A DNA stretch of 64,000 nt, from contig NZ_LBIP01000013.1 of the NCBI RefSeq assembly GCF_001280435.1, positions 248,001 through 312,000 on the forward strand. The letters are read 5' to 3'. Source of the stretch: Mangrovimonas xylaniphaga. Lineage in GTDB: Bacteria > Bacteroidota > Bacteroidia > Flavobacteriales > Flavobacteriaceae. Positions 12,204-41,967 of this stretch are shown piece by piece (the first letter of the stretch is position 1; each line of letters begins with the position of its first letter). The notes beneath the pieces are model-generated. The model was not told the origin of the DNA. It did not search any database and saw nothing but the letters and a program-made list of their open reading frames with translations. A program made the translations under genes and the position numbers.

Positions 12204-12212
12204 CTACACTTT

Positions 12213-14660: not shown

Positions 14661-14704
14661 TATTTTAGTTAAATTTCACTAAATTAACAACTTAAAGCCG
14701 ACCT

Positions 14705-16495
14705 ATGAGAAGTAAACAATTACTAAATTGCCTCATACTTTTCTGCTATAACACCTACTGCTTTGGACAAGATATTTCATTATACAAGCAATTTAATGGA
14801 CGGTACGACTATACAGCCATTGGAAACACCCTTAATCTTGTAGAAAATGGTACTGATGACCCTTGTGAAATTTTAACCTCTTCTTCCGCATCTTTAAATT
14901 TAAATCCGAACCAAAATATTATTGCTGCCTATTTATATTGGGCTGGAAGTGGACCTGGAGATTTCGAGATTAAAGTTAATGATATAGATATTATAGCTGA
15001 ACGAAAATTTTCAAACATTTTTTCTAATAATGACTCTGAATTAGCCTTTTTTGCAGCTTTTACAGATGTCACTTCAATATTTCTGGAAAATGGTTCTGGA
15101 GAATATAATATATCAGACCTTGATGTTTCCAAAGAAATTCCATCATATTGTCCTACGGGCACAAACTTTGCGGGTTGGGCCATTGTAATCATATTTAAGG
15201 ATAACAATCTCCCTCTAAATCAACTAAACGTTTATGACGGCTTGCAAAGTGTTCCTGATATGCTAAGCATTAAGTTAGATAACTTAAATGTTCTGGACAA
15301 TGAAGGTTCAAAAATAGGATTCATTGCATGGGAAGGTGATGCTTCTTTAGCTGTCAGTGAACAGTTAACAATCAATGGAAAAGTTATAGGAAATCCTCCT
15401 TTAAACCCTCCCAACAATGCCTTCAATGGTACAAACAGCTTTACAGGTTCATCAAACTTGTACAACATGGATATTGATGTTTACAATCTTAAAAATAACA
15501 TCGCCATAGGAGATTCTTCCGCAATCATAGAGCTCACTTCAGGCCAAGACCTTGTAATAATCAATAATATCATCACAGTTTTAAACAATCAGCTTCCAGA
15601 TGCTAAAATTACCTTAGATAGCTACACTTTAGAATGTGATGATAGGGGTATTGAAATTACCTATACGGTTTTCAATACCAAATCAACAGACATCCTTCCT
15701 GCCAATACGCCAATAGCCTTATATGCCAATTCGGTTTTAGTAGGTCAAAGCTATACACTTAACAACATTCCTATTGATGGTTCAGAATCAAACACTATCA
15801 CAATACTTATACCCGAAAGCGTTGAAGATGATTTTATCCTAACTTTATCTGTTGATGACACCGGTGTAAACTCGGGAATTGTTACAGAACTGAATGAAGA
15901 AAACAATACGGAAAACACTTATATTGAACTGTTAATCGTTCCTCCTCCTGAAGTCTTACAGACAAACGTGGCCTGTGACGAAGGATTTGACACAGCCTAT
16001 TTCAACTTAGAAGAAATACTCGAAAGTTTACCTCTAAATTCTGAAACCTATTCATTTTATACTTCCTTGGAAGATCTAAAAAATAGGGAAAATGAAATTT
16101 TCAATACCAATAATTATTCCAATATCATTAACCCCCAAACAATTTTTGTTAAAGTTGAAAACGATTATTGCTACACCATTTACAGTTTTGATATTTTAGT
16201 TGAAAATTGCCCCCCTTTTATTCCAGAAGGGTTCTCTCCCAATTCAGATGGTTTGAATGATTGGTTTAATATTCAAGGCCTTTATGATATCTTTGAAAAA
16301 CATAAACTAAAAATCTTTAACAGAAACGGTGTCTTAATTTTTGAAGGCAACAATACAACTCCTTGGGAAGGTAGATCTAACAGAGGCTTAAATAATGTTG
16401 GCAATCTTATGCCTGTAGGAACCTACTATTACATTTTAGATTTAAATGATCCTAACTATAAAGACATCGCCGGATGGGTATATGTTAATTACTGA
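14705..16495 (+). CDS. Secreted protein with gliding-motility-associated C-terminal domain
   Basis: A 596-residue exported protein with a signal peptide to about CFGQ (residue 22). The N-terminal part (25-290) contains NQNIIAAYLYWAGSG, FFAAFTDVTSIFL and GWAIVIIFKDNNLPLNQLNVYDG, a surface-protein domain common in Bacteroidota. The middle (300-420) looks like a CARDB-type Ig fold (YTVFNTKSTDILPANTPIALY ... LNEENNTEN). One CD-module (VACDEGFDTAYFNLEEIL) precedes the sorting domain (FSPNSDGLNDWFNIQG ... PVGTYYYILDLN), which is more divergent than in the neighbours. It lies 44 bp after the preceding gene. Confidence 0.88.
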   Translation: MRSKQLLNCLILFCYNTYCFGQDISLYKQFNGRYDYTAIGNTLNLVENGTDDPCEILTSSSASLNLNPNQNIIAAYLYWAGSGPGDFEIKVNDIDIIAERKFSNIFSNNDSELAFFAAFTDVTSIFLENGSGEYNISDLDVSKEIPSYCPTGTNFAGWAIVIIFKDNNLPLNQLNVYDGLQSVPDMLSIKLDNLNVLDNEGSKIGFIAWEGDASLAVSEQLTINGKVIGNPPLNPPNNAFNGTNSFTGSSNLYNMDIDVYNLKNNIAIGDSSAIIELTSGQDLVIINNIITVLNNQLPDAKITLDSYTLECDDRGIEITYTVFNTKSTDILPANTPIALYANSVLVGQSYTLNNIPIDGSESNTITILIPESVEDDFILTLSVDDTGVNSGIVTELNEENNTENTYIELLIVPPPEVLQTNVACDEGFDTAYFNLEEILESLPLNSETYSFYTSLEDLKNRENEIFNTNNYSNIINPQTIFVKVENDYCYTIYSFDILVENCPPFIPEGFSPNSDGLNDWFNIQGLYDIFEKHKLKIFNRNGVLIFEGNNTTPWEGRSNRGLNNVGNLMPVGTYYYILDLNDPNYKDIAGWVYVNY

Positions 16496-16525
16496 TAATT
16501 ATATCCAGCATTTAGTCGCTTTTTT

Positions 16526-16555
16526 TTGCTGTTCATCTAATTTTCAGTACTTTTG
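16526..16555 (+). promoter_or_regulatory. Consensus Bacteroidota promoter (TTG-N19-TACTTTTG)
   Basis: TTG at 16526-16528, a 19-nt spacer and TACTTTTG at 16548-16555 match the Bacteroidota sigma-70-type consensus fully. The predicted start near 16560 leaves a leader of about 70 nt before the ATG at 16633. The leader has no obvious strong hairpin or terminator. Confidence 0.75.
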
Positions 16556-16632
16556 CGCCCTAAACAACTAGCTTCAATCGTTATACATGTCACTATCAGC
16601 ATGAGTCTCATGGAAAGCTATAACCCCTAGTC

Positions 16633-19600
16633 ATGAAAACATTCAAAACTTTCTTTCTAATCTTTGCCTGTTTTTTATGTAATCCCATATTTTCCCAGCA
16701 AATTTCTGTAGACAACTCATACTCTGCTCAAAAACTTATTGAAGATATATTAGTACAGGGGTGTGTTGAAATTTCCAACGTAACTTCTCAAATAAATGGG
16801 AGTGTTAATGGGTTTCAAAGTTTTGGATATTTTGAAAAATCCTCTTCAAATTTTCCATTCCAAAAAGGAATTATTTTGTCTACCGGCAATGCTACCTCAG
16901 CAGGAAATACTCCTAACTCTAATATTTTAAATGAAGGGGAGCCTAATTGGGGTGCAGACACAGATTTGGAAAACGCATTGAATATTAACGGTACTGTTAA
17001 TGCTACTTCCTTAGAATTTGATTTTGTATCTATTTCCAACCAAATACAATTCAATTATATTTTAGCATCCGAAGAATATATTGACCATTACCCATGTCAA
17101 AATTCTGATGGATTTGCATTTTTAATCAAAGAAACTGGCAGCACAGGACCTTATACAAATATAGCGGTAATCCCTGGAACTTCCACTCCTGTAAATACCA
17201 ATACCATTCACGATGAAATTTCAGGCTATGCAATGGGAAATAATTGTCCCTCCGAAAATGAGGAATACTTTGCAGGATACAGTATAGGAGATACTAATTT
17301 TAATGGCCGCACTACTGTTATGACAGCGACAGCCTCCATTACTCCCAATGTGCAATATCATGTTAAATTGGTTATTGCTGATCAAACCGATGAAAATTAC
17401 GATTCTGCAGTTTTTATAGAAGGAAATAGTTTCAATACGAATGTAGACTTGGGAGATGACCTTACCACCTGTGCCGCTTCGGAAATCTTAAATGGAGATA
17501 TTCACAATCCTATAGCTGTGTACTCTTGGTATTTGGATGACTCCCTTATTTCTGGAGAAAAACAACCTACACTTAACGTAACCGAATCAGGGACATATAA
17601 AGTAGTTATTGAAATCCCTATTTCCAATAGCACTTGTCTAATTGAAGACACTGTAATCATAAATCTGAGCTCTACCCAAACAGCTAGCCCCATAGGTGAT
17701 TTTGAAATTTGTGACGATCCTAGCAACAATGGAATCGAAACATTTGATTTAAATTCAATGAATAATGTCGTTTTAGAATCTGTGCCGCAATCAAACTATG
17801 CTATATCCTATCATTATTCACAGACAGATGCCGAAAACAATACAACTCCAATAACAGCTCCAATACAAAACACAACTAGCCCAGAAGCTATTTACGTAAG
17901 AATTGAAGATATTGATAATGGATGCTTGGCCTATAGCAGTTTTAATCTAGTAGTCAATCCACTTCCTGTAATTGTAGACCCTACAGATCTTTTGGTATGC
18001 GATGATAGTAATCCTGATGATTTGACAAGCATTGATCTAACAGAAAAAAACGAAGAAATAACCTCTGGACAAAGTAATTTGGAAGTAACTTACCATTACT
18101 CTCAAGCCGATGCAAATTCAGGAGATAATCCTTTACCTTCTCCTTACACTAACACAAATCCCATAGAGCAGCTCTTTGTTAGGGTAATTGATTCTCAAAC
18201 AGGTTGCGCCTCTACAACAACTCTTGACATTATAATAAAAAGCAATCCTGTTATTAATTCGGAAGATTTATATATCGATGCCTGTGATACAGAACACGAC
18301 GGTTACGCCACATTCGACCTAAATACCATTATTGATGAAGTCCTGAATGGTCTTACAGGAGTATCCTCCACATTTCACGAAACTTATGAAGATGCACTTT
18401 TAGGAGACAACCCTATTCCAAACCCTTCTAGTTACGACAACGAAGATTTTGAAGTACAAACTGTTTACATTCGGGTAGTAGATGATATCACCGGCTGCGC
18501 CTCAGTAACCTCTTTTGAAATCCACCCAAACCTGTTACTAACTGGAACTAATATCCAAGATATCTCAGTTTGTGATATCAGTAATGATGGTTATGAAGAT
18601 TTTGATTTAAGTAGTATAGCAATGGTCATTGCCAATAATATTCCAGACGTGACTATCGCTTTTTACCTATTCGAAAGTGATAGAGAAAATAAAATTGGTG
18701 AATTAAATCAAAATGAGCCTTTCACCCCAACAGAATATCCTCAAAAATTGTATCTGACTATTAGTAGCCCTACCTGCGAAGAATATGCAGAAATAGAACT
18801 ATTTATAACTGGCATCAATGAATTTGAATCTATTGGAAACAAAGAATATTGCGATGACGATCAAGATGGTTTCACTTTAATAGACCTAACTTCTTTTGAC
18901 AGCCTTGTAACAGCAGGACAATCGGAGTATACAGTAAGTTATTTTGCCACCAAAGCTGACGCTGAAGCCAACTTGCATGCACTTCCAAATGAGTACACCA
19001 ATACCTCGAACCCTCAAACTTTCTACACAAGGATTCGTTTTGATGAAACAGGTTGCACCTCTACTAACTCATTTCAAGTAACTGTATTACTAGCTCCTAC
19101 CACCAATACCCCTTCACCAATTAAAATTTGTGATGATGATGAGGATGGAATACACATAGTTAATCTTACTTCAAAAATTTCTGAGATAATTTCCGATACT
19201 TCAAACAAAACTATTACATTCCATAATAGCTTTGAAGATGCTGATACTGGAGCTGAACCTATTCTGGAACCAAACAATTATACTACAAATACTAAAACTT
19301 TATATGTAAGGGTTGAAAATGGAGACAGTTCATGTTTCTCTATAGAACCTTTAGATATCTACATTAATACTTTACCCCAAATATCAACAACAATTAGTGA
19401 CTATAAAATTTGTGAACAAGACAGTGATGACATCGGAGATTTTAGCTTTATAACAAAAGACGATGAAATTTTAAATGGACAGACAGGTAAACAAGTTCTG
19501 TATTTTACATCTCTATCTGATGCTGAAAACAGAAATGCCGCTATTGACAAAAATGCTCCTTACCAAAATACAAGCAATCCCCAGATTATCTATATAAGAA

Positions 19601-21477
19601 TGGAAAACATTACCGATCAAGATTGCTTCATCACTTCTTCTTTTTCCATAGAAATGGGCACTAACCCTCAGTTCAATAAGCCAATTGATTGGTTTGTGTG
19701 TGACGATATTGCCAATGATGGATTTGAAGAGTTCGACCTTAATGAAAAAATCATTGAAATTACCCAAGGTATAGATGAAACTATTGACGTTACTTTCCAT
19801 CTTACTTTAGCTGATGCCGAAAGCGGAAATAAACCTCTTCCCCGAAATTATACCAATACCACCAATCCACAAACAATTTTTGCAAACCTTAACAACGGAA
19901 CTTTCTGTAATTCAATAACAAGCTTTGAACTAAATGTCATACAAGCGCCAGAGGCAAACCCCGCCTTACCTCTAGTGCAATGTGATACAGACAATGATGG
20001 TATTGTTACTTTTGACTTAACACAAACAGAGGTAGATATTTTAGATGTAAGACAGGAAAACATTATCATTTCCTATTATGAAACTTTAGAAGACTTGGAC
20101 AATGAGGCCTACGAAATCCTTGACCCTACTTTTTATAACAATGTAACCACCCCGCAAACCGTCTATTTTAGAATCACCAATACAGTCTCTGGTTGTTATT
20201 TGGCCATCCCAATTGATCTTATAGTCAATCTACCTCCTCCTATAAATCAAATAGAAAATATTGAAATCTGTGAAAACGAAAACAACTACTATGATCTTAA
20301 TGAAACAAACAGTTTACTGCTGAACGACACCAATGGAGTTACTTTCAACTATTTTAAAACAGCAGAAGATGCCCAGAATAATATAAATCCTATTTCTACA
20401 GAGTACACTTATCAATCTTATAATGATACAATTCATGTTAGAGCTGAATATAATGAGACAGGTTGTGTCAGCACCTACTCCTTTATATTGAATGTAAATG
20501 AATTGCCCAATGTAAACACCCCTCCAGATTTGGAAGATTGCGATGATGATTATGATGGTTTTTTAACTTTTGATCTTTCCGGACAGGATACTACTATTTT
20601 AGGAGCTCAAGACCCTACAAAATTCTCAGTCACTTACTATTCAGATGAAGTATACGCCAGTGCTAGAAAAAATGCACTTAGCCAACCTTCCAATTTACAA
20701 GATCAACAGATAGTCTATTCCAGAGTAGAAAACAACGAAACAGGTTGTTTTAGCATTACTCAATTCAAGGTTTTTGTTAATCCAAAACCTATTGTTGAGA
20801 TCCCAAACCAAGCTATCTGTTTAGATAATTTACCATTAGTTATTGACGCCAACACCTCTGTGGAGGGAGATACTTACCTCTGGTCTACAGGAGACACAAC
20901 CGCCGAAATTGAAATTGACGAAATAGGTATTTACTCTGTTACTGTAACCACATTGGATGGATGTAGTACTACAAGTGAGTTTACAATCACCGAATCTGAG
21001 AAAGCTAATATAGAATTTACTGAAGTTTTGGACTTCTCAGATCCTAATAATGTGACTGTAACCGTAAGCGGAATTGGGGACTATCTTTATCAATGGGATG
21101 ATGAGGAACCTCAGGAATCCAATGTCTTTGAAAATGTCACCTATGGATACCATACTATCACCGTAATTGATTTGAATGGATGTTCTGAAGTTAGCAAAGA
21201 AATTGTGGTCGTGGATGCTCCAAAGTTCATGACACCAAATCACGATGGATATGCAGATACATGGCATATTGCAGGAGTGGAAACATTACCTGGCACTATC
21301 GTTTATATATATGACCGATTTGGAAAACTGCTCAAACAACTATCGTCAGACTCAGAAGGTTGGGACGGTACTTACAATGGCCATTTAATGCCCGCGTCAG
21401 ATTATTGGTTTGTGGCCAATGTAAAACGCGGAGATATTGAATTTGAAGTCCGTGGGCATTTTGCGCTTCGTCGATAG
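16633..21477 (+). CDS. Giant T9SS type B cargo protein with choice-of-anchor L-like N-terminus
   Basis: A 1614-residue exported protein with a signal peptide ending about PIFSQ (residue 22). The N-terminal domain (about 25-270) has GIILSTGNATSAGNTPNSN, FNYILASEEYIDHYPCQNSDGFAFLI-type wording and VIADQTDENYDSAVFIEG, matching the choice-of-anchor L domain. I count eleven CD...DG...FDL modules of roughly 85-105 residues, each carrying a Ca-binding-like DxDxDG near its start and a conserved GC before its end. An Ig-like GDTT module and the sorting domain (FMTPNHDGYADTWHIAG ... PASDYWFVAN) follow. It is probably a surface adhesin or fibre. It has its own full promoter. Confidence 0.93.
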   Translation: MKTFKTFFLIFACFLCNPIFSQQISVDNSYSAQKLIEDILVQGCVEISNVTSQINGSVNGFQSFGYFEKSSSNFPFQKGIILSTGNATSAGNTPNSNILNEGEPNWGADTDLENALNINGTVNATSLEFDFVSISNQIQFNYILASEEYIDHYPCQNSDGFAFLIKETGSTGPYTNIAVIPGTSTPVNTNTIHDEISGYAMGNNCPSENEEYFAGYSIGDTNFNGRTTVMTATASITPNVQYHVKLVIADQTDENYDSAVFIEGNSFNTNVDLGDDLTTCAASEILNGDIHNPIAVYSWYLDDSLISGEKQPTLNVTESGTYKVVIEIPISNSTCLIEDTVIINLSSTQTASPIGDFEICDDPSNNGIETFDLNSMNNVVLESVPQSNYAISYHYSQTDAENNTTPITAPIQNTTSPEAIYVRIEDIDNGCLAYSSFNLVVNPLPVIVDPTDLLVCDDSNPDDLTSIDLTEKNEEITSGQSNLEVTYHYSQADANSGDNPLPSPYTNTNPIEQLFVRVIDSQTGCASTTTLDIIIKSNPVINSEDLYIDACDTEHDGYATFDLNTIIDEVLNGLTGVSSTFHETYEDALLGDNPIPNPSSYDNEDFEVQTVYIRVVDDITGCASVTSFEIHPNLLLTGTNIQDISVCDISNDGYEDFDLSSIAMVIANNIPDVTIAFYLFESDRENKIGELNQNEPFTPTEYPQKLYLTISSPTCEEYAEIELFITGINEFESIGNKEYCDDDQDGFTLIDLTSFDSLVTAGQSEYTVSYFATKADAEANLHALPNEYTNTSNPQTFYTRIRFDETGCTSTNSFQVTVLLAPTTNTPSPIKICDDDEDGIHIVNLTSKISEIISDTSNKTITFHNSFEDADTGAEPILEPNNYTTNTKTLYVRVENGDSSCFSIEPLDIYINTLPQISTTISDYKICEQDSDDIGDFSFITKDDEILNGQTGKQVLYFTSLSDAENRNAAIDKNAPYQNTSNPQIIYIRMENITDQDCFITSSFSIEMGTNPQFNKPIDWFVCDDIANDGFEEFDLNEKIIEITQGIDETIDVTFHLTLADAESGNKPLPRNYTNTTNPQTIFANLNNGTFCNSITSFELNVIQAPEANPALPLVQCDTDNDGIVTFDLTQTEVDILDVRQENIIISYYETLEDLDNEAYEILDPTFYNNVTTPQTVYFRITNTVSGCYLAIPIDLIVNLPPPINQIENIEICENENNYYDLNETNSLLLNDTNGVTFNYFKTAEDAQNNINPISTEYTYQSYNDTIHVRAEYNETGCVSTYSFILNVNELPNVNTPPDLEDCDDDYDGFLTFDLSGQDTTILGAQDPTKFSVTYYSDEVYASARKNALSQPSNLQDQQIVYSRVENNETGCFSITQFKVFVNPKPIVEIPNQAICLDNLPLVIDANTSVEGDTYLWSTGDTTAEIEIDEIGIYSVTVTTLDGCSTTSEFTITESEKANIEFTEVLDFSDPNNVTVTVSGIGDYLYQWDDEEPQESNVFENVTYGYHTITVIDLNGCSEVSKEIVVVDAPKFMTPNHDGYADTWHIAGVETLPGTIVYIYDRFGKLLKQLSSDSEGWDGTYNGHLMPASDYWFVANVKRGDIEFEVRGHFALRR

Positions 21478-33647: not shown

Positions 33648-34988
33648 ATGGAAACAACTAATCAAACAATATTACAGCCGACAAAATCCAAAGAGCGAAT
33701 CAATTCTTTGGATGTCATTCGAGGGGTTGCCCTTCTAGGGATTCTCTTAATGAATATCAATGGTATGGGGCTTCCCTTTGCCTATATGGACCCTACTATA
33801 TCCGGTGGAGCCGAAGGCTTAAACCTAAAAGCATGGATCATGACCAATATGTTATTTGAAGGGACCATGAGAGGCCTATTCACCTTACTTTTTGGAGCAG
33901 GAGTGATTTTACTAACCTCTCGTTTGGAACGCAGTGGTGCAGGAATAAAAACTGCCGATATTTATTATAGACGTCTTTTATGGCTATTAATTTTTGGAAT
34001 TATTAACGCCTACGTCTTTTTATGGCATGGAGATATTCTGTTCCATTATGCTGTGTTTGGACTTATGTTGTTTCCTTTTAGAAATACCCCGTCCAAAAAA
34101 TTAATCATAGGTGGTTTGGTATTGATAAGTTTAGGGGTGGTTTGGACTTACAGTGAATATAGGGACACTCTTAAAATCAAAAAAGAAGGGCTTGAAGCCG
34201 CGTCCTTAAAAAAAGCTAACGATTCCTTGACCTCGAAACAGACAGCCGCTTTGGGAAAATGGGAAAAATTGAACACCAAAATGCCTCAAGAAAAAATCGA
34301 CGAACAAATTGCAGAAATGCGCAATCCCAGTTACTGGTCCATTTTTAGTTACAAAGCTAAACACTATTCCGAACGCCAAGGCTGGTTTCTATATCGGTTT
34401 GACCTATGGGATGTTTTCAGTTATATGCTGCTGGGGATGGCATTTTTCAACCTAAGAATCTTTCACGGTGAAAAATCTTTTAAATATTATGGGGTTATGG
34501 CAATCATTGGTTATGGTATAGGGCTTTCTGTCAACTATTATGAAACTTCCCAACTTATCAAAAGCAGCTTTGACCCCATTGTAACTTCCAAAACCTTTAT
34601 CACCTATGATTTGGGAAGACTATTCACAACCTTGGGCCATGTGGGGTTTATCATGCTTTTCATTAAATCCGGAATATTGGGCTTCCTTCAAAAATCTTTA
34701 GCTGCGGTAGGAAGAATGGCCTTAACCAACTATTTAGTACACAGTATTATTGTGGCCTTTATTTTTCTAGGATTTGGATTTTCACTTTATGGACAATTGG
34801 AACGCCATCAACTATATTACATCGTTTTTGCCATTTGGATTGCCCAATTAATCTACAGTCCCATTTGGTTAAAATATTTTAGATATGGCCCATTTGAATG
34901 GCTATGGCGCTCCTTGACCTATAAACAAAAACAGCCTTTTAGAATTGAAGCCAAACAACCCTTAACAGTTAAAGCGACCGAATCTTGA
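33648..34988 (+). CDS. DUF418 family membrane protein (YeiB-like)
   Basis: A 446-residue multi-pass protein. It begins RINSLDVIRGVALLGILLMNI, the first-helix signature shared by DUF418 and acyltransferase-3-like families. A soluble linker at about 175-225 is charged (KKEGLEAASLKKANDSL). The C-terminal DUF418 region has AAVGRMALTNYLVHSII and ends FRYGPFEWLWRSLTY. The family is thought to be acyltransferase-like, but no activity is proven. The 210-bp gap upstream shows no clear promoter box. Confidence 0.88.
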   Translation: METTNQTILQPTKSKERINSLDVIRGVALLGILLMNINGMGLPFAYMDPTISGGAEGLNLKAWIMTNMLFEGTMRGLFTLLFGAGVILLTSRLERSGAGIKTADIYYRRLLWLLIFGIINAYVFLWHGDILFHYAVFGLMLFPFRNTPSKKLIIGGLVLISLGVVWTYSEYRDTLKIKKEGLEAASLKKANDSLTSKQTAALGKWEKLNTKMPQEKIDEQIAEMRNPSYWSIFSYKAKHYSERQGWFLYRFDLWDVFSYMLLGMAFFNLRIFHGEKSFKYYGVMAIIGYGIGLSVNYYETSQLIKSSFDPIVTSKTFITYDLGRLFTTLGHVGFIMLFIKSGILGFLQKSLAAVGRMALTNYLVHSIIVAFIFLGFGFSLYGQLERHQLYYIVFAIWIAQLIYSPIWLKYFRYGPFEWLWRSLTYKQKQPFRIEAKQPLTVKATES

Positions 34989-35078
34989 ATTTGCATTTTC
35001 GAATGTTTCTAACAATCAACGGATTATTATGCCTATATTTATTACAGTTCCTCAAGTCTTAGGTTTAATCTCTGATAG

Positions 35079-36266
35079 TTGCCTATGCTCATAAAAACCA
35101 ACCGAATTGAAACGATTGACCTCTTGCGGGGCGTGGTCATGGTACTCATGGCACTGGACCATACCAGGGATTATTTCCATATAGGAAATTCTATTAGCGA
35201 TCCAACCGATTTGGAAACCACTACTCCATTTCTATTCTTTACGAGATTCATAACGCACTATTGTGCGCCTGTTTTTATTTTTTTGGCGGGAACTTCAGCT
35301 TTTCTTTACGGAAGTAGAAAAACAAAACCTCAACTGTTCAAATTCCTTTTTACAAGAGGCTTATGGTTGATCTTCCTGGAAATTGTTCTGAACAATCTTA
35401 TCTGGCAATTCGATCCAGAATACAATTTGATTGTCCTCCAAGTTATTTGGGCCATTGGACTTTGTATGGTAGGCTTATCTTTTTTGATATTCCTCCCCAA
35501 AAAGATTCTCTTGGTTATTGGAGCTATATTGATAGCAGCCCATAATACTTTCGACAGCTTTACTTTTGAAGGGTCTAATATTCGCTCCATACTTTGGTAC
35601 ATATTCCATCAGCGTCAAGGCATTCCTCTTGGAGAAGACCACTTTATCATTTTTGCCTACCCTATTGCCCCATGGTTGGGCGTCATGGTTTTGGGTTATT
35701 GTTTTGGGGTGCTTTACAGTAAGGATTTTAATGCCGTTACTAGAAAAAAATGGTTACTACAATTTGGACTTTTTGCCATTGCGGCCTTTTTCATTATTCG
35801 AGGTATCAATATTTATGGTGATATGGTACCGTGGACCAAACAAAAGAACTTTGTATTTACGGTATTGTCCTTTTTCAATGTCACTAAATACCCACCATCC
35901 TTACTGTACGTACTGATCACCCTAGGGCCTGCTATGCTGTTTCTTTATGCATTTGAAGGTATCAAAACAAAAATCACGGACTTTTTTATTGTATTTGGAA
36001 GAGTGCCATTATTCTATTATTTCCTTCATGTACTGCTTATCCATGCTTTGGCCATTCTAGGCATCTTAATTTTGGGAGGCAGTTTGAGTGACCTAACAGC
36101 ATCAAGAGGTGGACTTTCTCCTTCCAGTATTGCTGCGTACGGGTACTCTTTATTTGTGGTTTATATAGTCTGGAATATCATTATAGCCATTCTTTACCCT
36201 ATCTGTAAAAAGTACATGAGGTACAAGGCGAAAAACAAAGCGAAATGGTGGCTCAGTTATCTATAA
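35079..36266 (+). CDS. DUF1624 / HGSNAT-like membrane acyltransferase homologue
   Basis: A 395-residue multi-pass protein starting RIETIDLLRGVVMVLMALDHTRDYF, the signature of the heparan-alpha-glucosaminide N-acetyltransferase-type catalytic domain; the His in ALDHTRDY corresponds to the conserved His of the family. About ten helices are visible (for example FGRVPLFYYFLHVLLIHALAIL). Members move acyl groups across membranes onto sugars. It follows the DUF418 gene at 90 bp, and the two could modify the same envelope glycan. The first Met of MPML is likely; the next possible one is MLI two codons later. Confidence 0.85.
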   Translation: MPMLIKTNRIETIDLLRGVVMVLMALDHTRDYFHIGNSISDPTDLETTTPFLFFTRFITHYCAPVFIFLAGTSAFLYGSRKTKPQLFKFLFTRGLWLIFLEIVLNNLIWQFDPEYNLIVLQVIWAIGLCMVGLSFLIFLPKKILLVIGAILIAAHNTFDSFTFEGSNIRSILWYIFHQRQGIPLGEDHFIIFAYPIAPWLGVMVLGYCFGVLYSKDFNAVTRKKWLLQFGLFAIAAFFIIRGINIYGDMVPWTKQKNFVFTVLSFFNVTKYPPSLLYVLITLGPAMLFLYAFEGIKTKITDFFIVFGRVPLFYYFLHVLLIHALAILGILILGGSLSDLTASRGGLSPSSIAAYGYSLFVVYIVWNIIIAILYPICKKYMRYKAKNKAKWWLSYL

Positions 36267-36468
36267 GGGCTTCAAATAAATGACTAAAAACAGGATAAAG
36301 AATAAAAAAACTGCAAGCTAAAACCCTTTTAAAACCTATAAAAAAAATTGAATTTCAAACATTTACACATTAATTAACCAATTCTTTAGTATATTTAATA
36401 CAGTATCGCAAACCAATTATTCTCCCCATTCATAAGAACATTTTTTGTGTAACTTAAAATTTGAAATT

Positions 36469-36804
36469 ATGAAACCCGAGGCAAACACTTGGACCAAAAC
36501 CGAATTGCAAGTCTATATTCTACTGCTTTGTGCCAATGCAGATTCTCATGAATCGGAGGCTGAAATCAACCTGATCAAGTCCAAATCTTCTCCTGAGATC
36601 TTCGAGAAAATGTACCAGGAATTTTCTAGTGACACAGAAGAACAGCGTTTTGAAAAAATTGATGACACGGTACAATTGCACCACTATTCCAACATAGAAT
36701 TGGCTCAGCTAAGAAGAGAAATGTACGAAGTATTTTTCTCCGACTGCAATTTTGCCATGATGGAACGCAATTTGGACAAGATTATGGATAACATTCTTTA
36801 TTAA
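36469..36804 (+). CDS. Small TerB-like hypothetical protein
   Basis: From ATG 36469 the protein has 111 residues; an in-frame TTG at 36445 would add eight residues but looks less likely. It is helical and acidic. TELQVYILLLCANADSHESEAEINLIKSK resembles the first metal-binding helix pair of TerB-like proteins (acidic cluster DSHESEAE). It has no signal peptide. Function unknown. A hairpin terminator begins at its stop codon, so it is probably transcribed apart from the channel operon that follows. Confidence 0.75.
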   Translation: MKPEANTWTKTELQVYILLLCANADSHESEAEINLIKSKSSPEIFEKMYQEFSSDTEEQRFEKIDDTVQLHHYSNIELAQLRREMYEVFFSDCNFAMMERNLDKIMDNILY

Positions 36805-36831
36805 ATATGGATGTTCAAGAAACATCCATAT
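36805..36831 (+). terminator. Hairpin after the TerB-like gene
   Basis: A perfect 11-bp stem (ATATGGATGTT / AACATCCATAT) with a 5-nt loop immediately after TAA 36802-36804. It is followed by ATTTC rather than a long T run, so termination may be partial. Confidence 0.6.
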
Positions 36832-37018
36832 ATTTCAGAAGCCTTGACATTTGGAAATCTCCCTACTTGAGTTACTGGCCACAAAATCCTTATGTCCTAT
36901 TGACAACTGCCTATTACAAACTTCCTTTTTCATCCAGGCTCCTTCTCGTTTCTCTCTCGCTATTTTCTCTCCATTATAAATTTCCTATTATAATTTCCTT
37001 TCAAATCCTCTACCTGAT

Positions 37019-38884
37019 ATGAAAACATTGACCAGCCTAGTTCTTTTTCTTTTGGTTTCTTGGTCTAGTTTATCTCAGGAAATGGAATTGAAACGCTATT
37101 CCTATTCCAAATTATTTCAAATGATTGAAGAGGAACAGGATACTATTTTTAGACTTAAAAATGCTGAAATTGTCTACAATGAAGCTACAGACTCTCTCTT
37201 TCAGGCAAAAGCAAATAATTCGATAGATTCTATTATTAGTACTCAGAAACAAAAAGTCATTAACAAAGTATTATTTTTAGATAATGTACAATTCTTAACT
37301 TCAAAAGATAAGGAAGATGAAACCGTTAATAACGGTGTACTACAACACATCACCTTCCTAAAAGAAGTAACATTTAGCCAATGTGCCTCCATCCCACTTT
37401 TTAACTGCCACTTTAAGGGAAGGCTATATTTATTCCTAGAAAACAGAGACAATCAAATAGACAATATAATTAACTATATCCAAAACACTTGGAATCAAGG
37501 TGAATTCCAAACAGCAACCTTTGGATTGACTATTCTGAATTGTCATTTTTATAATGAAACTGTCATTGCATCAAGCTTGATCCCACATAAACTTGACTAT
37601 CCATACAACTTGACCGTTATTATTGATCGTTGTACATTTTATGAATACCAACCCCTACACGAAAATTACAATAGTAACTTCTTTTTAATCTTTAGAAGCA
37701 TCAACAATCTGCACTTCGCTAACAATCGAATTATAGGTGAATCAACCCTCATAAATTTTGTTTCAGACAAGGTGGATTATACCGGGATAGAAGCAAATGA
37801 ATTTTTAGAGTCTTCTATTTTGCTTCGTGTTACGGAAATGCAAGGCATAAACCTTTTAAATATTTCAAAAAATTCTTTTGGAAATCATGTGGGACTTGCT
37901 ATTGATACTTTTGACCCAAAACATATTGTTGATTGGGAATCTCTAAAAGGAAAGCTCTTCTCCACCCAAACCTATGATAATTATTTTTATAAGACAAACC
38001 CTCCATACATTAACATATCAACTAAAGACTTAAAAAGTTATTTAGACCAAAGATTACAAGACAAAGACATTTTTAAAGGAGAATTAGCTCTTCGGGGCAA
38101 ATTGCTCAACCACTATAATGATATTCTGGACACCGAAAGTAAAAACTCAGTCTATATAGAATTAAAAGATTTAGAAACACAAAAGCTTGCCTACGAATAT
38201 AAAACAGCCCCATCCTTTGACACCTATTTTCAATGGAAAGTTAATCAATTTTTAAAGCTGTTTTCCAATTATGGCACTAAACCTTCCAAAGCCATCATCT
38301 TTTCACTGTATGTCATCATTTTCTTTGCGATCATCTATCTATTTTTTCCAAACAGTTGGGATTCTCATGGCAGAAAACGCATCATGGACCGTTTTACCTT
38401 TTTTATAAAATATATGAAAAAGGACGCGGGAATACATGAAGTGTACTTGGAAGATAAACAACCCGATTTAATGGAATATGAAGCTTTTAAAAACTTATTA
38501 ATCCAAGCTAGCCCGCAAGTCCCAAAATTTTTCATTATGACCGGCTTGCCCCTTTACAAATGGACTATTGCCAGAACCAATTTACACGCCTCAATTTTAA
38601 GCAAATTCGATATCATGAAAGGTACATGGCAAGATTTACCTTTAAAAAAACGGTTCTGGAAATCTATTTTATTGATAGGCGCTTTTTTGGTTGCCATTAT
38701 ATATGATCTTTTCATCAAAATACTGAATGCTTTAATGCTCTCCATAAACACCTTTACCACCCTTGGTTTCGGAGAAATCCCCATTAAAGGCTTCCCTCGT
38801 TACCTTGCTATTTTACAAGGATTTATTGGTTGGTTTATGTTGACCATTTTTAGTGTTTCACTTATATCTCAATTACTCAACTAG
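37019..38884 (+). CDS. Ion channel with a large exported N-terminal domain
   Basis: A 621-residue protein. It has an N-terminal signal peptide (MKTLTSLVLFLLVSWSSLSQ). A long exported region of about 400 residues follows, with repeated strand-turn units (LTILNCHFYNETV, LTVIIDRCTFYEY, LHFANNRIIGES, LNISKNSFGNH) that look like a right-handed beta-helix or pentapeptide-like solenoid. Then come a membrane helix (about 430-447), a cytoplasmic-type linker (450-550) and a pore unit with helix 553-572, filter-like TLGFGE (581-586) and a last helix to 618. The pore matches two-TM potassium-channel pore loops. The gene is 1 bp upstream of the first DUF6090 gene. Ion specificity and ligand are unknown. 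Confidence 0.8.
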   Translation: MKTLTSLVLFLLVSWSSLSQEMELKRYSYSKLFQMIEEEQDTIFRLKNAEIVYNEATDSLFQAKANNSIDSIISTQKQKVINKVLFLDNVQFLTSKDKEDETVNNGVLQHITFLKEVTFSQCASIPLFNCHFKGRLYLFLENRDNQIDNIINYIQNTWNQGEFQTATFGLTILNCHFYNETVIASSLIPHKLDYPYNLTVIIDRCTFYEYQPLHENYNSNFFLIFRSINNLHFANNRIIGESTLINFVSDKVDYTGIEANEFLESSILLRVTEMQGINLLNISKNSFGNHVGLAIDTFDPKHIVDWESLKGKLFSTQTYDNYFYKTNPPYINISTKDLKSYLDQRLQDKDIFKGELALRGKLLNHYNDILDTESKNSVYIELKDLETQKLAYEYKTAPSFDTYFQWKVNQFLKLFSNYGTKPSKAIIFSLYVIIFFAIIYLFFPNSWDSHGRKRIMDRFTFFIKYMKKDAGIHEVYLEDKQPDLMEYEAFKNLLIQASPQVPKFFIMTGLPLYKWTIARTNLHASILSKFDIMKGTWQDLPLKKRFWKSILLIGAFLVAIIYDLFIKILNALMLSINTFTTLGFGEIPIKGFPRYLAILQGFIGWFMLTIFSVSLISQLLN

Positions 38885-38885
38885 C

Positions 38886-39626
38886 ATGTACACCTTTTTC
38901 AGTTCCATCCGCAAACAACTAGCCACACAAAACAAAGCAGCCGCCTACATGCGCTATGCCATTGGGGAAATTGTGCTGGTGGTGATTGGAATTTTAATTG
39001 CACTTCAAATCAACAATTGGAATTCCTACAGGAAGGACAGACTTCTTGAAAAACAATATTTAGAGAACTTTTTACGAGACCTTAAAAGCGATTCCATTAG
39101 TTTAACCTATTTCTCAAATTCCTCTCCTAAAAAAATAGAAGTACTCCTCATGGCCAGAGATCATGTACTTCATCAAACACCTATAAAAGACACTCTAGAC
39201 TTCATCAATAAAATGGGATATGGAGGGGTTGGCAGTAGAGGAACCATGGTAGAATCCAAAAGCACCTATGATGACATTATAAGTACAGGAAATCTCCTTC
39301 TATTAAAGAATGAAAATCTCAAACAACATTTGCTTTTTTATTATCAATTCTCAGAACATACTAAACGGTATCTAGGAAACCTGCAAACAGAATACGCCAC
39401 ATTTATGAATTCCTACTTCCCTTTTGATAGCGAAGGAACTTTTAAAACAGTCCCTAAAGAGATCCCGCAAATTCTTGAGGCTCTGAAATCTGAAGAGTTT
39501 TTACGACTGGCGAATTCCGAATTAACCTATGCCTATGCCTTAAAAACTCGGGTAGAAATAATTTCCAAACTAAACGAAGCAACCAAGGCCCTCATTAAAA
39601 CCGAACTAAACCTCCACAGCAAATGA
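38886..39626 (+). CDS. DUF6090-type membrane protein, paralogue 1
   Basis: A 246-residue protein from ATG 38886, 1 bp after the channel stop; a GTG at 38853 inside the channel gene is less likely because MYTFFSSIRKQLA is the conserved start. A short amphipathic N-terminus is followed by RYAIGEIVLVVIGILIALQINNWN (about 25-48), a single membrane anchor. About 195 residues on the far side are helical. The family is common in Flavobacteriia and has no known function. Overlap with the next gene is ATGA, so translation is coupled. Confidence 0.82.
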   Translation: MYTFFSSIRKQLATQNKAAAYMRYAIGEIVLVVIGILIALQINNWNSYRKDRLLEKQYLENFLRDLKSDSISLTYFSNSSPKKIEVLLMARDHVLHQTPIKDTLDFINKMGYGGVGSRGTMVESKSTYDDIISTGNLLLLKNENLKQHLLFYYQFSEHTKRYLGNLQTEYATFMNSYFPFDSEGTFKTVPKEIPQILEALKSEEFLRLANSELTYAYALKTRVEIISKLNEATKALIKTELNLHSK

Positions 39627-40381
39627 TGCACTTCTTCTCAAAAATTCGCTACAAACTAGCTGCAGAAAATAAGGCTTCCAAATACATGCGTTATGCCATT
39701 GGAGAAATTGTCTTGGTGGTGATTGGTATTTTGATAGCGCTTCAAATCAATAATTGGAATGAAAACAGAAAGCTACAAGTTGAAGAACAGCAAATCTTAA
39801 GCAGTTTATTGGAAGATTTAAAAGCAGCAAAAAAACAATCAGAAGAATCCATAATCAAAGAAAAGTTGGCCATAGACGAAATGGAAGCAGCTTTGGGCAA
39901 CAAAGAAGAGCGAACAAACTTCTTTAACAAAGAAAACAACAACCCCCTTTACCATAATATCTTTTGGGGTTTTGAAATTGATATTCCGGTCATAAACGCC
40001 TACGAAGAAATTAAAACCTCAGGAAAAACAGACCTCATCAGTAATAAAACTATCCGAAGTCATTTTACCAATCTAGAACGTAGCATCAACAACCTCAACA
40101 ACCTCATGGACGACCGAATAAGAGTACATCAGTTGCGAATAGATGAAATTGTAGTAGAATACCTCAACTTTTTACCCCTCCTTAAAGCGGAATTTCCTAA
40201 ACTCTCCATTGAAACGGGACCTCCAATTGATTTTGAAGCTATTATGGAGCAACCTAAAATAAGGAATTTGATAGGCATAAAACTGGAGCTAAGTACCAGT
40301 GTTTACTATTACAGAAAACAACTATCCGATGAAATCCAACTGCTTATCGAACTCCTCGAGAAAGAAATTGAGAAACCATGA
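39623..40381 (+). CDS. DUF6090-type membrane protein, paralogue 2
   Basis: A 252-residue protein; the ATG at 39623 overlaps the preceding stop (ATGATG allows either of two Met starts). It has the same N-terminal plan: FFSKIRYKLAAENKASKYM, then the membrane block RYAIGEIVLVVIGILIALQ and INNWNENRK. The distal part has a strong coiled-coil-like stretch (KLQVEEQQILSSLLEDLKAAKKQSEES) and differs from paralogue 1 in sequence, so the anchor is much better conserved than the rest. Confidence 0.82.
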   Translation: MMHFFSKIRYKLAAENKASKYMRYAIGEIVLVVIGILIALQINNWNENRKLQVEEQQILSSLLEDLKAAKKQSEESIIKEKLAIDEMEAALGNKEERTNFFNKENNNPLYHNIFWGFEIDIPVINAYEEIKTSGKTDLISNKTIRSHFTNLERSINNLNNLMDDRIRVHQLRIDEIVVEYLNFLPLLKAEFPKLSIETGPPIDFEAIMEQPKIRNLIGIKLELSTSVYYYRKQLSDEIQLLIELLEKEIEKP

Positions 40382-41118
40382 TTAAATTCTTTAGAAACAT
40401 TCGCAAACAACTAGCAGCACAGAACAAAACTGCAGCCTATTTGCGCTATGCCATTGGCGAAATTATATTGGTGGTCATTGGCATATTGATTGCCTTACAA
40501 ATCAACAATTGGAATGAAAACAGACTTGAGAAACGTTCCGAAAATAAAATTCTTGGCAACCTCCATTCAGAATTTGCAGAAAACCTAAAGGACCTTGAAA
40601 ACATCAATGTACAACTTCAGGAAACCATCAATTCTATGGAAAAGGTCTTTGGACTATTCCGAACGGAAGATCTCCCATATACGTCTCATCAATTAGACAG
40701 TTTGCTTTCCCAATCCCTAAACAGTCCTACTTGGAAGCCTAGTGATTTTGTACTTAACGAGCTCAAAAATTCTGGAGGACTCTCTAAATTGGGTAATGAA
40801 GATTTAAAACGCTTATTGTTTGAATGGTCCCGCTCCTTTGCCGAATTACAGGAAATACAAACCCAAACAGAAAACACCAATATCGCATTGATTCATTACA
40901 TCAAGCAGCATGGGTCGCTTAGAAATATTGATCATCTGGGCAAGTATTTTACCTATCCGCCATCAAACATCCATCAAGGCAACCAAATCCTTTTAAAGGA
41001 GTTTCAATTTGAAAACTATATTGATGATAAATTATACATTTTAAGGCAACAAGTGGAGTTTTTCAAAACTACCAAAACTCTAATTTCTAAGATTTTGAAA
41101 CTCACAGAACCCACCTAA
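40378..41118 (+). CDS. DUF6090-type membrane protein, paralogue 3
   Basis: A 246-residue protein; ATG overlaps the preceding TGA. The N-terminus is FFRNIRKQLAAQNKTAAYL, then RYAIGEIILVVIGILIALQ and INNWNENRLEKRSENK. The exported part is helical (NLHSEFAENLKDLENINVQLQETINSMEK) and divergent from the other two. It completes a four-gene coupled operon with the channel. All three copies could assemble with each other or with the channel; nothing in the sequence proves this. Confidence 0.82.
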   Translation: MIKFFRNIRKQLAAQNKTAAYLRYAIGEIILVVIGILIALQINNWNENRLEKRSENKILGNLHSEFAENLKDLENINVQLQETINSMEKVFGLFRTEDLPYTSHQLDSLLSQSLNSPTWKPSDFVLNELKNSGGLSKLGNEDLKRLLFEWSRSFAELQEIQTQTENTNIALIHYIKQHGSLRNIDHLGKYFTYPPSNIHQGNQILLKEFQFENYIDDKLYILRQQVEFFKTTKTLISKILKLTEPT

Positions 41119-41179
41119 AACACTCATTTACAAAAGTTAAATTCAACATAAAGAGACCATAAGCCCTTACACAAAACAG

Positions 41180-41187
41180 TAACTTTG
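41180..41187 (+). promoter_or_regulatory. -7 box of the 39-codon gene
   Basis: TAACTTTG is a perfect TAnnTTTG box, 18 nt before ATG 41206 and after the DUF6090 operon. It argues that the small gene is transcribed on its own. Confidence 0.6.
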
Positions 41188-41205
41188 TAATATAATTAAT
41201 AGCAT

Positions 41206-41325
41206 ATGGACAATTTTAATATTGTTGTTTTATTTGCAGTACTCCTTTTTGCCCGTTTAGGAATTAGACTCTATACCAAATATCAGGAACTCAAAAAAGA
41301 AACAGACAAGGACACTTCCAAATAG
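41206..41325 (+). CDS. 39-aa single-helix membrane microprotein
   Basis: A short gene (ATG 41206 to TAG 41325). The product has a hydrophobic helix at residues 5-20 (NIVVLFAVLLFARLGI) and a charged C-terminal tail (YQELKKETDKDTSK), which suggests an inner-membrane protein with its tail in the cytoplasm. A perfect -7 box sits at 41180-41187. A weak 5-bp hairpin (CGGAA-ata-TTCCG, 41343-41355) with a T-rich flank follows the stop. I do not recognise a family. It is too short for composition alone to prove coding; the promoter and membrane pattern are the main support. Confidence 0.6.
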   Translation: MDNFNIVVLFAVLLFARLGIRLYTKYQELKKETDKDTSK

Positions 41326-41391
41326 AAAGCACTACATCCTTTCGGAAATATTCCGTTCTTTTTGAACTTTATTTTAGATATCTAAAAGAAT

Positions 41392-41967
41392 TTATTGTTT
41401 TACCGTTCCGTTGAATTGACTAATGCTGGAATTGATAGGATTCCCTGAACTCCTTCTAAAAGAAGCTATCTGCCCAGCATGCCAAATGGCATCTGCTAAC
41501 GGGCCATTGATGGCATTCCAAAATGGAAATTCACGCTCTCCAAACACGATTTTATAATCAGACAAACCATCACTGATACGTAGGGTATCCGCAATCTGTT
41601 TTAAATTCAAAAGGGTTTGTTTGCGCTTTTCTTCAAAACTTGAATTGGAAAAATCCCGTTTTGTATTGGGTTGCTTTAGAGTTGCATCCAAAACCACATA
41701 ACTCAAGTTCAAAATATGGTCAATAGTCTCACCTGTAGAACGCACTTCAGAGCTTGGGCTATATGCCAAATCGGTTTCGGTTAAACCTTCGGTTGCCCAA
41801 TAATACCGAAATCCCAATCCGTCTACCATTCTAGCCGCCACGGTTCCTGCCGTGTAGATTTCGGATGCTTGAGGCAATTCATAATAAGGTAGTGTCGTGT
41901 CCATATCCTTTTGGGCAAAAATAAGGGATGCCATCAATAGCATCCCTCCTGTTAAAATTATCTTCAT
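41392..41967 (-). CDS. Exported DinB-like protein
   Basis: A 191-residue protein with a signal peptide (MKIILTGGMLLMASLIFAQ). The mature part is helical and has histidines in DHILNLSYVV (about residue 85) and IWHAGQIASFRR (about 162), at positions where DinB-type four-helix proteins bind metal. The family spans bacillithiol- and mycothiol-linked transferases and many unknown proteins. It starts 3 bp after the M28 peptidase stop, so the two form an operon. Export of a DinB-like protein is characteristic of some Bacteroidota groups. Confidence 0.78.
   Translation of the reverse strand: MKIILTGGMLLMASLIFAQKDMDTTLPYYELPQASEIYTAGTVAARMVDGLGFRYYWATEGLTETDLAYSPSSEVRSTGETIDHILNLSYVVLDATLKQPNTKRDFSNSSFEEKRKQTLLNLKQIADTLRISDGLSDYKIVFGEREFPFWNAINGPLADAIWHAGQIASFRRSSGNPINSSISQFNGTVKQ

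What the first reader, a model, noticed from the sequence alone, without database searches (positions are those of the whole stretch)
37019..41118. Coupled operon of an unusual ion channel and three DUF6090 paralogues
The channel gene is followed by three paralogous single-anchor proteins at +1, ATGA and ATGA spacing, so all four are likely made together. The three paralogues keep an almost identical anchor (RYAIGE-x-VVIGILIALQ) but have divergent exported parts. A shared anchor with variable outer parts, next to a pore, would fit a channel with interchangeable sensor subunits, or a surface-sensing or self-recognition system. This is inference; no function is known for DUF6090. Of everything in the window, this is my best candidate for an undescribed system.
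Basis: partly seen in the sequence, partly recalled or inferred. Interest (0 to 1): 0.72.

Follow-up and report, generated by a model that had tools for sequence, protein, structure and literature searches.

The report
Potassium-type channel beside DUF6090 array
A marine bacterium carries a potassium-type channel gene with a large exported sensor-like domain directly in front of three related membrane-anchored proteins of unknown function; the pairing recurs in related bacteria more often than chance predicts, but each gene type also occurs without the other, so it is not a fixed machine.

Summary
Window 37019-38884 encodes an Ion_trans_2 channel (filter TLGFGE), followed at 1 nt, ATGA and ATGA spacing by three proteins above Pfam's DUF6090 cut-off. 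The genome belongs with Mangrovimonas.

The channel belongs to a Bacteroidota family with a signal peptide, an exported part modelled as a right-handed beta-helix, an extra helix, a cytosolic loop and a pore that ends the protein. Across 11 homologues pore identity averages 88%, beta-helix identity 20%.

Association: channel and DUF6090 lie side by side in 6 of 11 channel-bearing genomes read in this family, in five of them 0-2 nt apart (chance of at least four: about 5e-7). In other families it is 0 of 15. From the DUF6090 side, 2 of 23 genomes have a channel neighbour. Genus-mate G002 keeps the orthologous triplet without the channel; genomes with 28-38 DUF6090 copies have no channel. Channel-adjacent DUF6090 copies come from scattered branches.

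Best reading: two independent families, recurrently but not obligatorily linked; the channel is probably gated by its own exported domain. "Interchangeable sensor subunits" is not excluded. Fast-evolving self-recognition is unlikely: ectodomains are under purifying selection (dN/dS 0.04-0.17).

The parts
37019..38884 (+). Channel gene, 621 aa: signal peptide, exported beta-helix, extra TM, cytosolic loop, TM-P-TM pore that ends the protein
37019..37075 (+). Probable signal peptide (residues 1-19)
   Evidence: Read from the sequence; predicted helix 2-18; cleavage is inference
37145..37903 (+). Exported part modelled as a right-handed beta-helix (about residues 43-295)
   Evidence: AF2 strands; VIA-align Z 10.6-12.6 to beta-helix proteins; Pfam Beta_helix E 2.3e-4, below cut-off, in a G391 homologue
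38291..38347 (+). First hydrophobic helix, residues 425-443
   Evidence: hydropathy
38669..38881 (+). Pore module residues 551-621; mean pairwise identity 0.88 across 11 homologues
38759..38776 (+). Selectivity-filter-like TLGFGE (residues 581-586)
   Evidence: read; invariant in the 11 rows of A1; aligns to TVGYGE/TVGFGD of NaK-type channels (E 0.19)
38886..39626 (+). DUF6090 paralogue 1, 246 aa
   Evidence: all-helical model pLDDT 78.5
39623..40381 (+). DUF6090 paralogue 2, 252 aa
40378..41118 (+). DUF6090 paralogue 3, 246 aa
38886..39023 (+). Constant anchor of paralogue 1 (residues 1-46); equivalents at 39623-39760 and 40378-40515
36469..36804 (+). Small protein (~111 aa, no Pfam family over cut-off) at the upstream edge; homologues lie 13 nt from a DUF6090 gene in G002 and 10 nt from one in G026

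Best explanation
Two independent families share an operon here. (1) The channel is a member of a Bacteroidota family of P-loop, K+-type channels. A signal peptide exports a domain modelled as a right-handed beta-helix, which one extra helix and a cytosolic loop link to a TM-P-TM pore with a GFG filter. The protein ends directly after the last helix, with no cytosolic gating ring, so gating most likely comes from the exported domain (its ligand might be a glycan) or from the extra helix and loop, and opening would let K+ flow. (2) DUF6090 proteins are single-pass, N-in proteins with a constant anchor and a divergent helical exported part, kept in arrays of up to 84 copies per genome. The constant anchor probably docks on a constant membrane partner, and this channel cannot be that partner generally, because most DUF6090 genomes examined lack it. 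In some Flavobacteriaceae the channel has joined such arrays, coupled to whichever DUF6090 is next. This gives co-expression and perhaps a shared envelope-sensing role, but neither needs the other. Shown: architecture at sequence level, adjacency, non-obligacy, purifying selection. Inferred: K+ selectivity, gating by the ectodomain, topology, shared role.
For: Adjacency in G000, G001, G178, G234, G245, G391 (the DUF6090 neighbours are also Pfam matches), 0-2 nt in five genomes; chance of >=4 of 10 about 5e-7 and DUF6090 counts median 13 vs 1, p 0.0045. No DUF6090 beside the channel in G133, G141, G155, G277, G633 and in 15 of 15 genomes of other families. DUF6090 without channel: G002 with the orthologous triplet; G026, G027, G011, G017, G036. 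Channel-adjacent DUF6090 copies are scattered on the DUF6090 tree. Pore identity 0.88 vs residues 111-300 0.20. Channel dN/dS 0.127 overall, pore 0.012; DUF6090 outer parts 0.043-0.165. Beta-helix Z up to 12.6.
Against: The repeated 0-2 nt channel-DUF6090 junction in four genera, and a remnant of the channel inside a DUF6090 locus of G1135, point to a tighter link than loose co-residence. On the channel tree the DUF6090-adjacent label is clustered (5 changes, 6 of 500 shuffles as low; near-copies add to this), as a stable inherited pairing would give. The membrane half of the channel model has low confidence (pLDDT under 50 over most of 417-621), so gating is guesswork. K+ selectivity rests on a filter motif and a weak match (E 0.19). 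Foldseek gave no E <= 0.001 for the channel, and the tool warns that for repeat folds a Z under about 13 may reflect only a common arrangement.
Confidence: 0.5

Rival explanations
1. Interchangeable-subunit channel: the constant DUF6090 anchors dock on the constant pore, so any paralogue can tune one channel, and the divergent outer parts sense different cues.
For: 0-2 nt coupling in five genomes of four genera; constant membrane parts in both families; DUF6090 copies next to the channel come from different branches, as interchangeability would allow; co-occurrence p 0.0045.
Against: 21 of 23 DUF6090 genomes among relatives show no intact channel of this kind; G002 keeps the triplet without the channel, and its paralogue 3 is constrained relative to G000; the channel family occurs in genomes where no DUF6090 was found (G141, G155 with a broken copy, G450, G530, G604; the last three are 77-81% complete).
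Confidence: 0.2
2. Hitch-hiking: DUF6090 arrays are recombination-prone repeats that pick up and lose genes; the channel sits there without functional link.
For: Non-orthologous anchors still match at 77-83% over 117-155 nt in DNA. The G000-G002 identity profile changes inside paralogue 3 and is lower at the start of paralogue 1, with dS 0.15-0.20 in the outer parts of paralogues 1-2 against 0.5-1.7 in flanking genes. G1135 carries a fusion of a DUF6090 start with the last 35 channel residues. The genus-mate of G178 has no channel match, and among five genus-mates of G391 only the G1135 remnant was found.
Against: Apart from further DUF6090-type proteins, no other gene family adjoined arrays in three or more genera among 26 loci, whereas the channel did in five (seven of the 26 loci were fetched for the channel, which favours it). 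The gap to the next DUF6090 is 0-2 nt in four of the five genera.
Confidence: 0.25
3. Self-recognition or arms-race surface system with fast-evolving outer parts.
For: Up to 84 paralogues in one genome; outer parts only 23-34% identical between the window's paralogues.
Against: Orthologous outer parts between strains have dN/dS 0.043-0.165, i.e. constraint; closely related outer types pair up across genera in the tree, such as G026 with G036; no hit in the defence library.
Confidence: 0.05

Closest known systems
Ion_trans_2 / two-TM P-loop K+ channels (NaK, KcsA, MthK type)
   Same: TM-P-TM module at the C-terminus above Pfam's cut-off; filter motif aligns with NaK-type channels (E 0.19).
   Different: Large exported N-terminal domain, an extra helix and a cytosolic loop before the pore; nothing after the last helix, so no RCK ring as in MthK (MthK architecture recalled).
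GluR0, prokaryotic ligand-gated K+ channel (PMC13099474 and PMC2950845: outlines with abstracts seen)
   Same: Works like: an extracytoplasmic domain joined to a K+-type pore.
   Different: In these receptors the glutamate-binding domain is in two sections flanking two TM helices, and GluR0's topology is opposite to that of a canonical K+ channel (abstracts). Here the exported part is N-terminal and beta-helix-like, and the inferred orientation is canonical.
DUF6090 (PF19578)
   Same: All three proteins exceed the curated cut-off.
   Different: Nothing functional is known to compare with; no paper in the held library contains the word DUF6090.
Four-helix-bundle periplasmic sensor domains (chemoreceptor Tar, PcaY_PP; a histidine kinase sensor)
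   Same: Helical exported bundle next to an N-terminal TM helix; Z 8-9.
   Different: Designed bundles score higher (Z 12.7), so this is generic; no second TM and no cytosolic signalling part.
Right-handed beta-helix proteins (polysaccharide lyase RbmB, polygalacturonases, tailspikes)
   Same: Modelled fold of the exported part, Z 10.6-12.6 over 212-284 residues in the 50 rows listed.
   Different: Here it is fused to a channel; no catalytic family was matched in the window protein.

Membership tests
Ion_trans_2 channel (PF07885) | Match over the curated Pfam cut-off | tested here: met
   23.3 bits vs 22.5; of five other homologues scanned three are over it (G178, G277, one G391 copy) and two below (G234, G459)
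Ion_trans_2 channel (PF07885) | K+ filter signature T-x-G-[YF]-G between two hydrophobic helices | tested here: met
   TLGFGE, invariant in 11 homologues; helices 550-568 and 598-616; signature itself recalled
Ion_trans_2 channel (PF07885) | Tetramer and K+ conductance | not testable with these tools
   needs experiment
DUF6090 (PF19578) | Match over the curated Pfam cut-off | tested here: met
   37.5, 31.3 and 34.3 bits vs 23.5
GluR0-type glutamate receptor channel | Glutamate-binding domain in two sections around the pore helices | tested here: not met
   pore is at the extreme C-terminus and no such Pfam domain at E <= 1 in the protein; exported part modelled as a beta-helix
Type IV pilin (considered because of the GE-hydrophobic N-terminus) | A prepilin peptidase in the genome | tested here: not met
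   no PF01478 match in G000 while the search rings in 12 of 14 control genomes
Chemoreceptor-like four-helix sensor domain | Four-helix-bundle ligand-binding fold | tested here: inconclusive
   Z 8-9 to sensor domains, below designed bundles at 12.7
Known anti-phage defence system | Match in PADLOC-DB | tested here: not met
   0 families for 4 of 4 proteins at E <= 1

The most novel reading that the evidence does not exclude
A bacterial ligand-gated K+ channel with a beta-helix receptor domain whose modulators are drawn from a large paralogue array: the constant anchors of DUF6090 proteins dock on the constant pore, so a genome with dozens of ectodomain variants can feed many envelope signals into one conductance.
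Probability: 0.13. Interest if true: 0.85.

Novelty: new variant of a known kind. Interest (0 to 1): 0.5.

Why it matters
Channels with an exported beta-helix, if confirmed, would add a different design of ectodomain-coupled K+ channel to the one known from GluR0. The DUF6090 arrays (up to 84 copies per genome) are a striking unexplained family expansion; the channel is the one recurrent foreign neighbour found beside them in three or more genera (with the sampling caveat given in the report), so it is a concrete first lead. Strains of one genus with and without the channel make the dependence directly testable.

Tried and rejected
Type IV pilin reading of the GE-hydrophobic anchor: rejected, no prepilin peptidase match. 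Defence system: no PADLOC match. Mobile cargo: no phage record matches the channel at E <= 0.1 and no plasmid record matches paralogue 1 at E <= 1e-3; the other pairings were not searched. phrog_15350 matched the channel pore (E 8.8e-7, residues 568-611); not pursued beyond. NCBIfam gave no family over its cut-off. PDB sequence search with the channel profile gave 13 sequences, best E 0.0025, of leucine-rich-repeat receptors and designs, taken as repeat-pattern noise; for DUF6090 one chance-level hit at E 0.65. Foldseek on both models gave no E <= 0.001. A Bacteroidota-type promoter pattern (recalled) gave two matches in 36001-41500, neither in the 214 nt upstream of the channel, with no chance estimate; sigma-70-like sites were 19 against 18.9 in shuffles and terminator-like sites 4 against 3.4. 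A shared ectodomain motif was found in 58-61 of 123 proteins against 20-31 in shuffles, weak. Literature: no paper for DUF6090, none for the channel/beta-helix term sets or the pentapeptide/Ion_trans_2 set; the listings gave nothing on this pairing. A DUF6090 motif of mine missed some DUF6090-type proteins, six of which surfaced, so the tree is not complete for its loci. Dropped rows: G203 (27% identity, five stops in frame) and G514 (N-terminal part only, E 5.7e-4) were read and not counted as channels. Of 21 matching genomes, three (G000, G155, G178) were already in hand and ten more were read; G799, G802, G876, G907, G914, G968, G1056 and G1106 (short or weak matches) were not. G767 was counted though only its pore matched (E 1.9e-5).
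Full report
WHAT IS THERE. The four genes are as described. The channel runs 37019-38884; three DUF6090 proteins follow at a 1 nt gap and two ATGA overlaps. The genome lies in the genus of Mangrovimonas sp. TPBH4: the genus-mate G001 has the channel at 81% identity on a contig of 317,215 bases, which is the named record. G000 has nine DUF6090 copies, three of them here.

THE CHANNEL. It is more than a two-helix pore. The 621 residues comprise a probable signal peptide, an exported part of about 400 residues, and hydrophobic segments at 425-443, 550-568 and 598-616, with TLGFGE between the last two. Across 11 homologues the mean pairwise identity is 0.20 in residues 111-300 and 0.88 in residues 551-621 (alignment). 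The structure model is poor overall (pLDDT 58.6), with a strand-rich exported part. A second-look aligner gives Z 10.6-12.6 in 50 listed rows, which are mostly right-handed beta-helices such as polysaccharide lyase RbmB, polygalacturonases and tailspikes; the tool warns that for repeat folds Z under about 13 may mean only a common arrangement. Foldseek itself gave no E <= 0.001. Pfam's Beta_helix model hits one G391 homologue at E 2.3e-4, below its cut-off. The pore aligns with NaK-type channels at E 0.19. K+ selectivity and gating are therefore inferences. The gene is under constraint between G000 and G001: dN/dS 0.127 overall, 0.012 in the pore, 0.187 in residues 111-300.

THE DUF6090 PROTEINS. 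Each has one hydrophobic segment; paralogue 1 has an all-helical model (pLDDT 78.5). Structural matches are generic helical bundles; chemoreceptor and kinase sensor domains appear at Z 8-9 behind designed bundles at 12.7. Anchors are 67-72% identical among the three paralogues and outer parts 23-34%; most codon differences in the core anchor are synonymous. Between strains the outer parts are conserved: dN/dS 0.058, 0.043 and 0.091 for G000-G002 and 0.165 for paralogue 2 of G000-G001. So the divergence lies between paralogues, not between strains.

HOW OFTEN DO THEY GO TOGETHER? From the DUF6090 side: 23 of 60 relatives have DUF6090, with 159 matches by the per-genome table, of which the printed list was cut before its end. 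Comparing the listed places by eye with the Ion_trans_2 matches in the same 23 genomes, only G000 and G001 have a channel directly beside a DUF6090 gene. A broad channel profile finds no intact homologue in the other 21 genomes; three had weak matches at E <= 1, one of them (G010) a short piece with stops near a contig end. From the channel side: matches occur in 2 of 60, 11 of 397 (one dropped), 10 of 395 (one dropped) and 21 of 395 genomes; these samples overlap. I read the neighbourhoods of 26 genomes with a channel match. In the family of the window, 6 of 11 (G000, G001, G178, G234, G245, G391) have DUF6090 beside the channel and 5 do not (G133, G141, G155, G277, G633); in other families 0 of 15 do. 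Four of those 15 (G450, G603, G604, G775) lie near contig ends, but the downstream gene could be read in each; in G450 and G603 only pieces of the channel were seen. In G000, G001, G178, G391 and G245 the next DUF6090 starts 0-2 nt after the channel; in G234 the DUF6090 neighbours are 133 nt before and 231 nt after. In G391 four tandem channels precede the array, and in G178 the channel sits among 20 DUF6090 genes within 19 kb. These neighbours are also Pfam DUF6090 matches.

IS THAT CHANCE? With the next-gene probability set to DUF6090 copies per gene (genes taken as 900 per Mb), for 10 genomes (the genus-mate G001, the five genomes without DUF6090 and the ten class-level genomes left out), at least four immediate downstream neighbours has probability 5e-7. 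Channel-bearing genomes have more DUF6090 (median 13, n 10) than 35 channel-less relatives of the family (median 1), p 0.0045; the two samples were drawn differently and tree relatedness was not modelled. Apart from further DUF6090-type proteins, no other gene family adjoins DUF6090 in three or more genera among the 91 ORFs within 400 nt of DUF6090 genes in 26 loci, but seven of those loci were fetched because they, or a continuation of them, hold the channel. On a quick tree of 29 channels the DUF6090-adjacent label needs 5 changes (shuffled mean 7.9; 6 of 500 as low), helped by near-copies; the G234 channel lies apart from the rest.

IS IT OBLIGATE? No. G002 has the same locus, the same small upstream gene and the same three DUF6090 genes, without the channel. 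Whether this is loss in G002 or gain elsewhere depends on the branching: dS to G000 is lower in G002 than in G001 for two flanking genes (M28 0.505 vs 0.893; DinB 0.59 vs 0.768) and higher for a third (PPK2 1.67 vs 1.01), and flanking DNA identity is 87.0% vs 85.6% over 34001-36300. The channel's own dS to G001, 0.82, is like that of flanking genes. Loss in G002 is the simpler reading, not proven. Paralogue 3's outer part has dS 0.607 and dN/dS 0.091 between G000 and G002, so it stayed constrained. Conversely G141 carries the channel, and G155 a broken copy, with no DUF6090 found. In a tree of 123 DUF6090 proteins the seven channel-adjacent ones need seven changes, and 500 of 500 shuffles are as low (the careful tree did not finish, so this is the quick tree). 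There is no dedicated partner clade.

RECOMBINATION. Anchors of different paralogues still match in DNA. Identity between G000 and G002 is 94-100% in most 100-nt windows of paralogues 1-2 and the start of paralogue 3, lower at the start of paralogue 1 (87) and at the 1-2 junction (86), then 80-89% in four of the last five windows. In G1135, a genus-mate of G391, a short ORF joins the first 26 residues of a DUF6090 protein to the last 35 of the channel: a channel was there, in a DUF6090 locus, and was lost. The genus-mate of G178 has no channel match (1 of 2 genomes, G178 itself), and of six genomes in the genus of G391 only G391 has full copies.

VERDICT. The proposed machine of a channel with DUF6090 sensor subunits is one of several readings and is not the best supported, because each part is kept without the other. 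The more solid novelty is the channel family itself. Papers: of PMC13099474 and PMC2950845 the outline with abstract was seen; other papers only as search listings.

Noticed in passing
window 36469-36804: Small protein without a Pfam family over cut-off; its homologue lies inside the DUF6090 array of G026 and 13 nt before it in G002, so it is a neighbour of this locus also where the channel is absent.
   Followed up: partly
L128 1182-1373 (G1135): Chimeric scar ORF: DUF6090 anchor start fused to the last 35 residues of the channel; evidence of array-mediated loss.
   Followed up: yes
window 38886-41118 against L039 9352-11584: Mosaic identity between strains of one genus, suggesting a recent exchange covering paralogues 1-2 and the start of 3.
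   Followed up: partly
L030, L031: Genomes with 55-84 DUF6090 matches, an unexplained family expansion.
   Followed up: partly
L116, L117: Tandem channel genes without DUF6090 beside them outside the window's family (G817, G942).
   Followed up: partly
window 8802-21477: Row of large exported proteins with similar C-terminal ends of the 'FxTPNxDGxND' type, apparently tandem paralogues of secreted surface proteins (label recalled, not tested).
   Followed up: no
L031 10355-14240: Two tandem channel ORFs of G391 share an almost identical N-terminal leader (ESVIASAARQS), perhaps a repeat element upstream of the true start.
   Followed up: no
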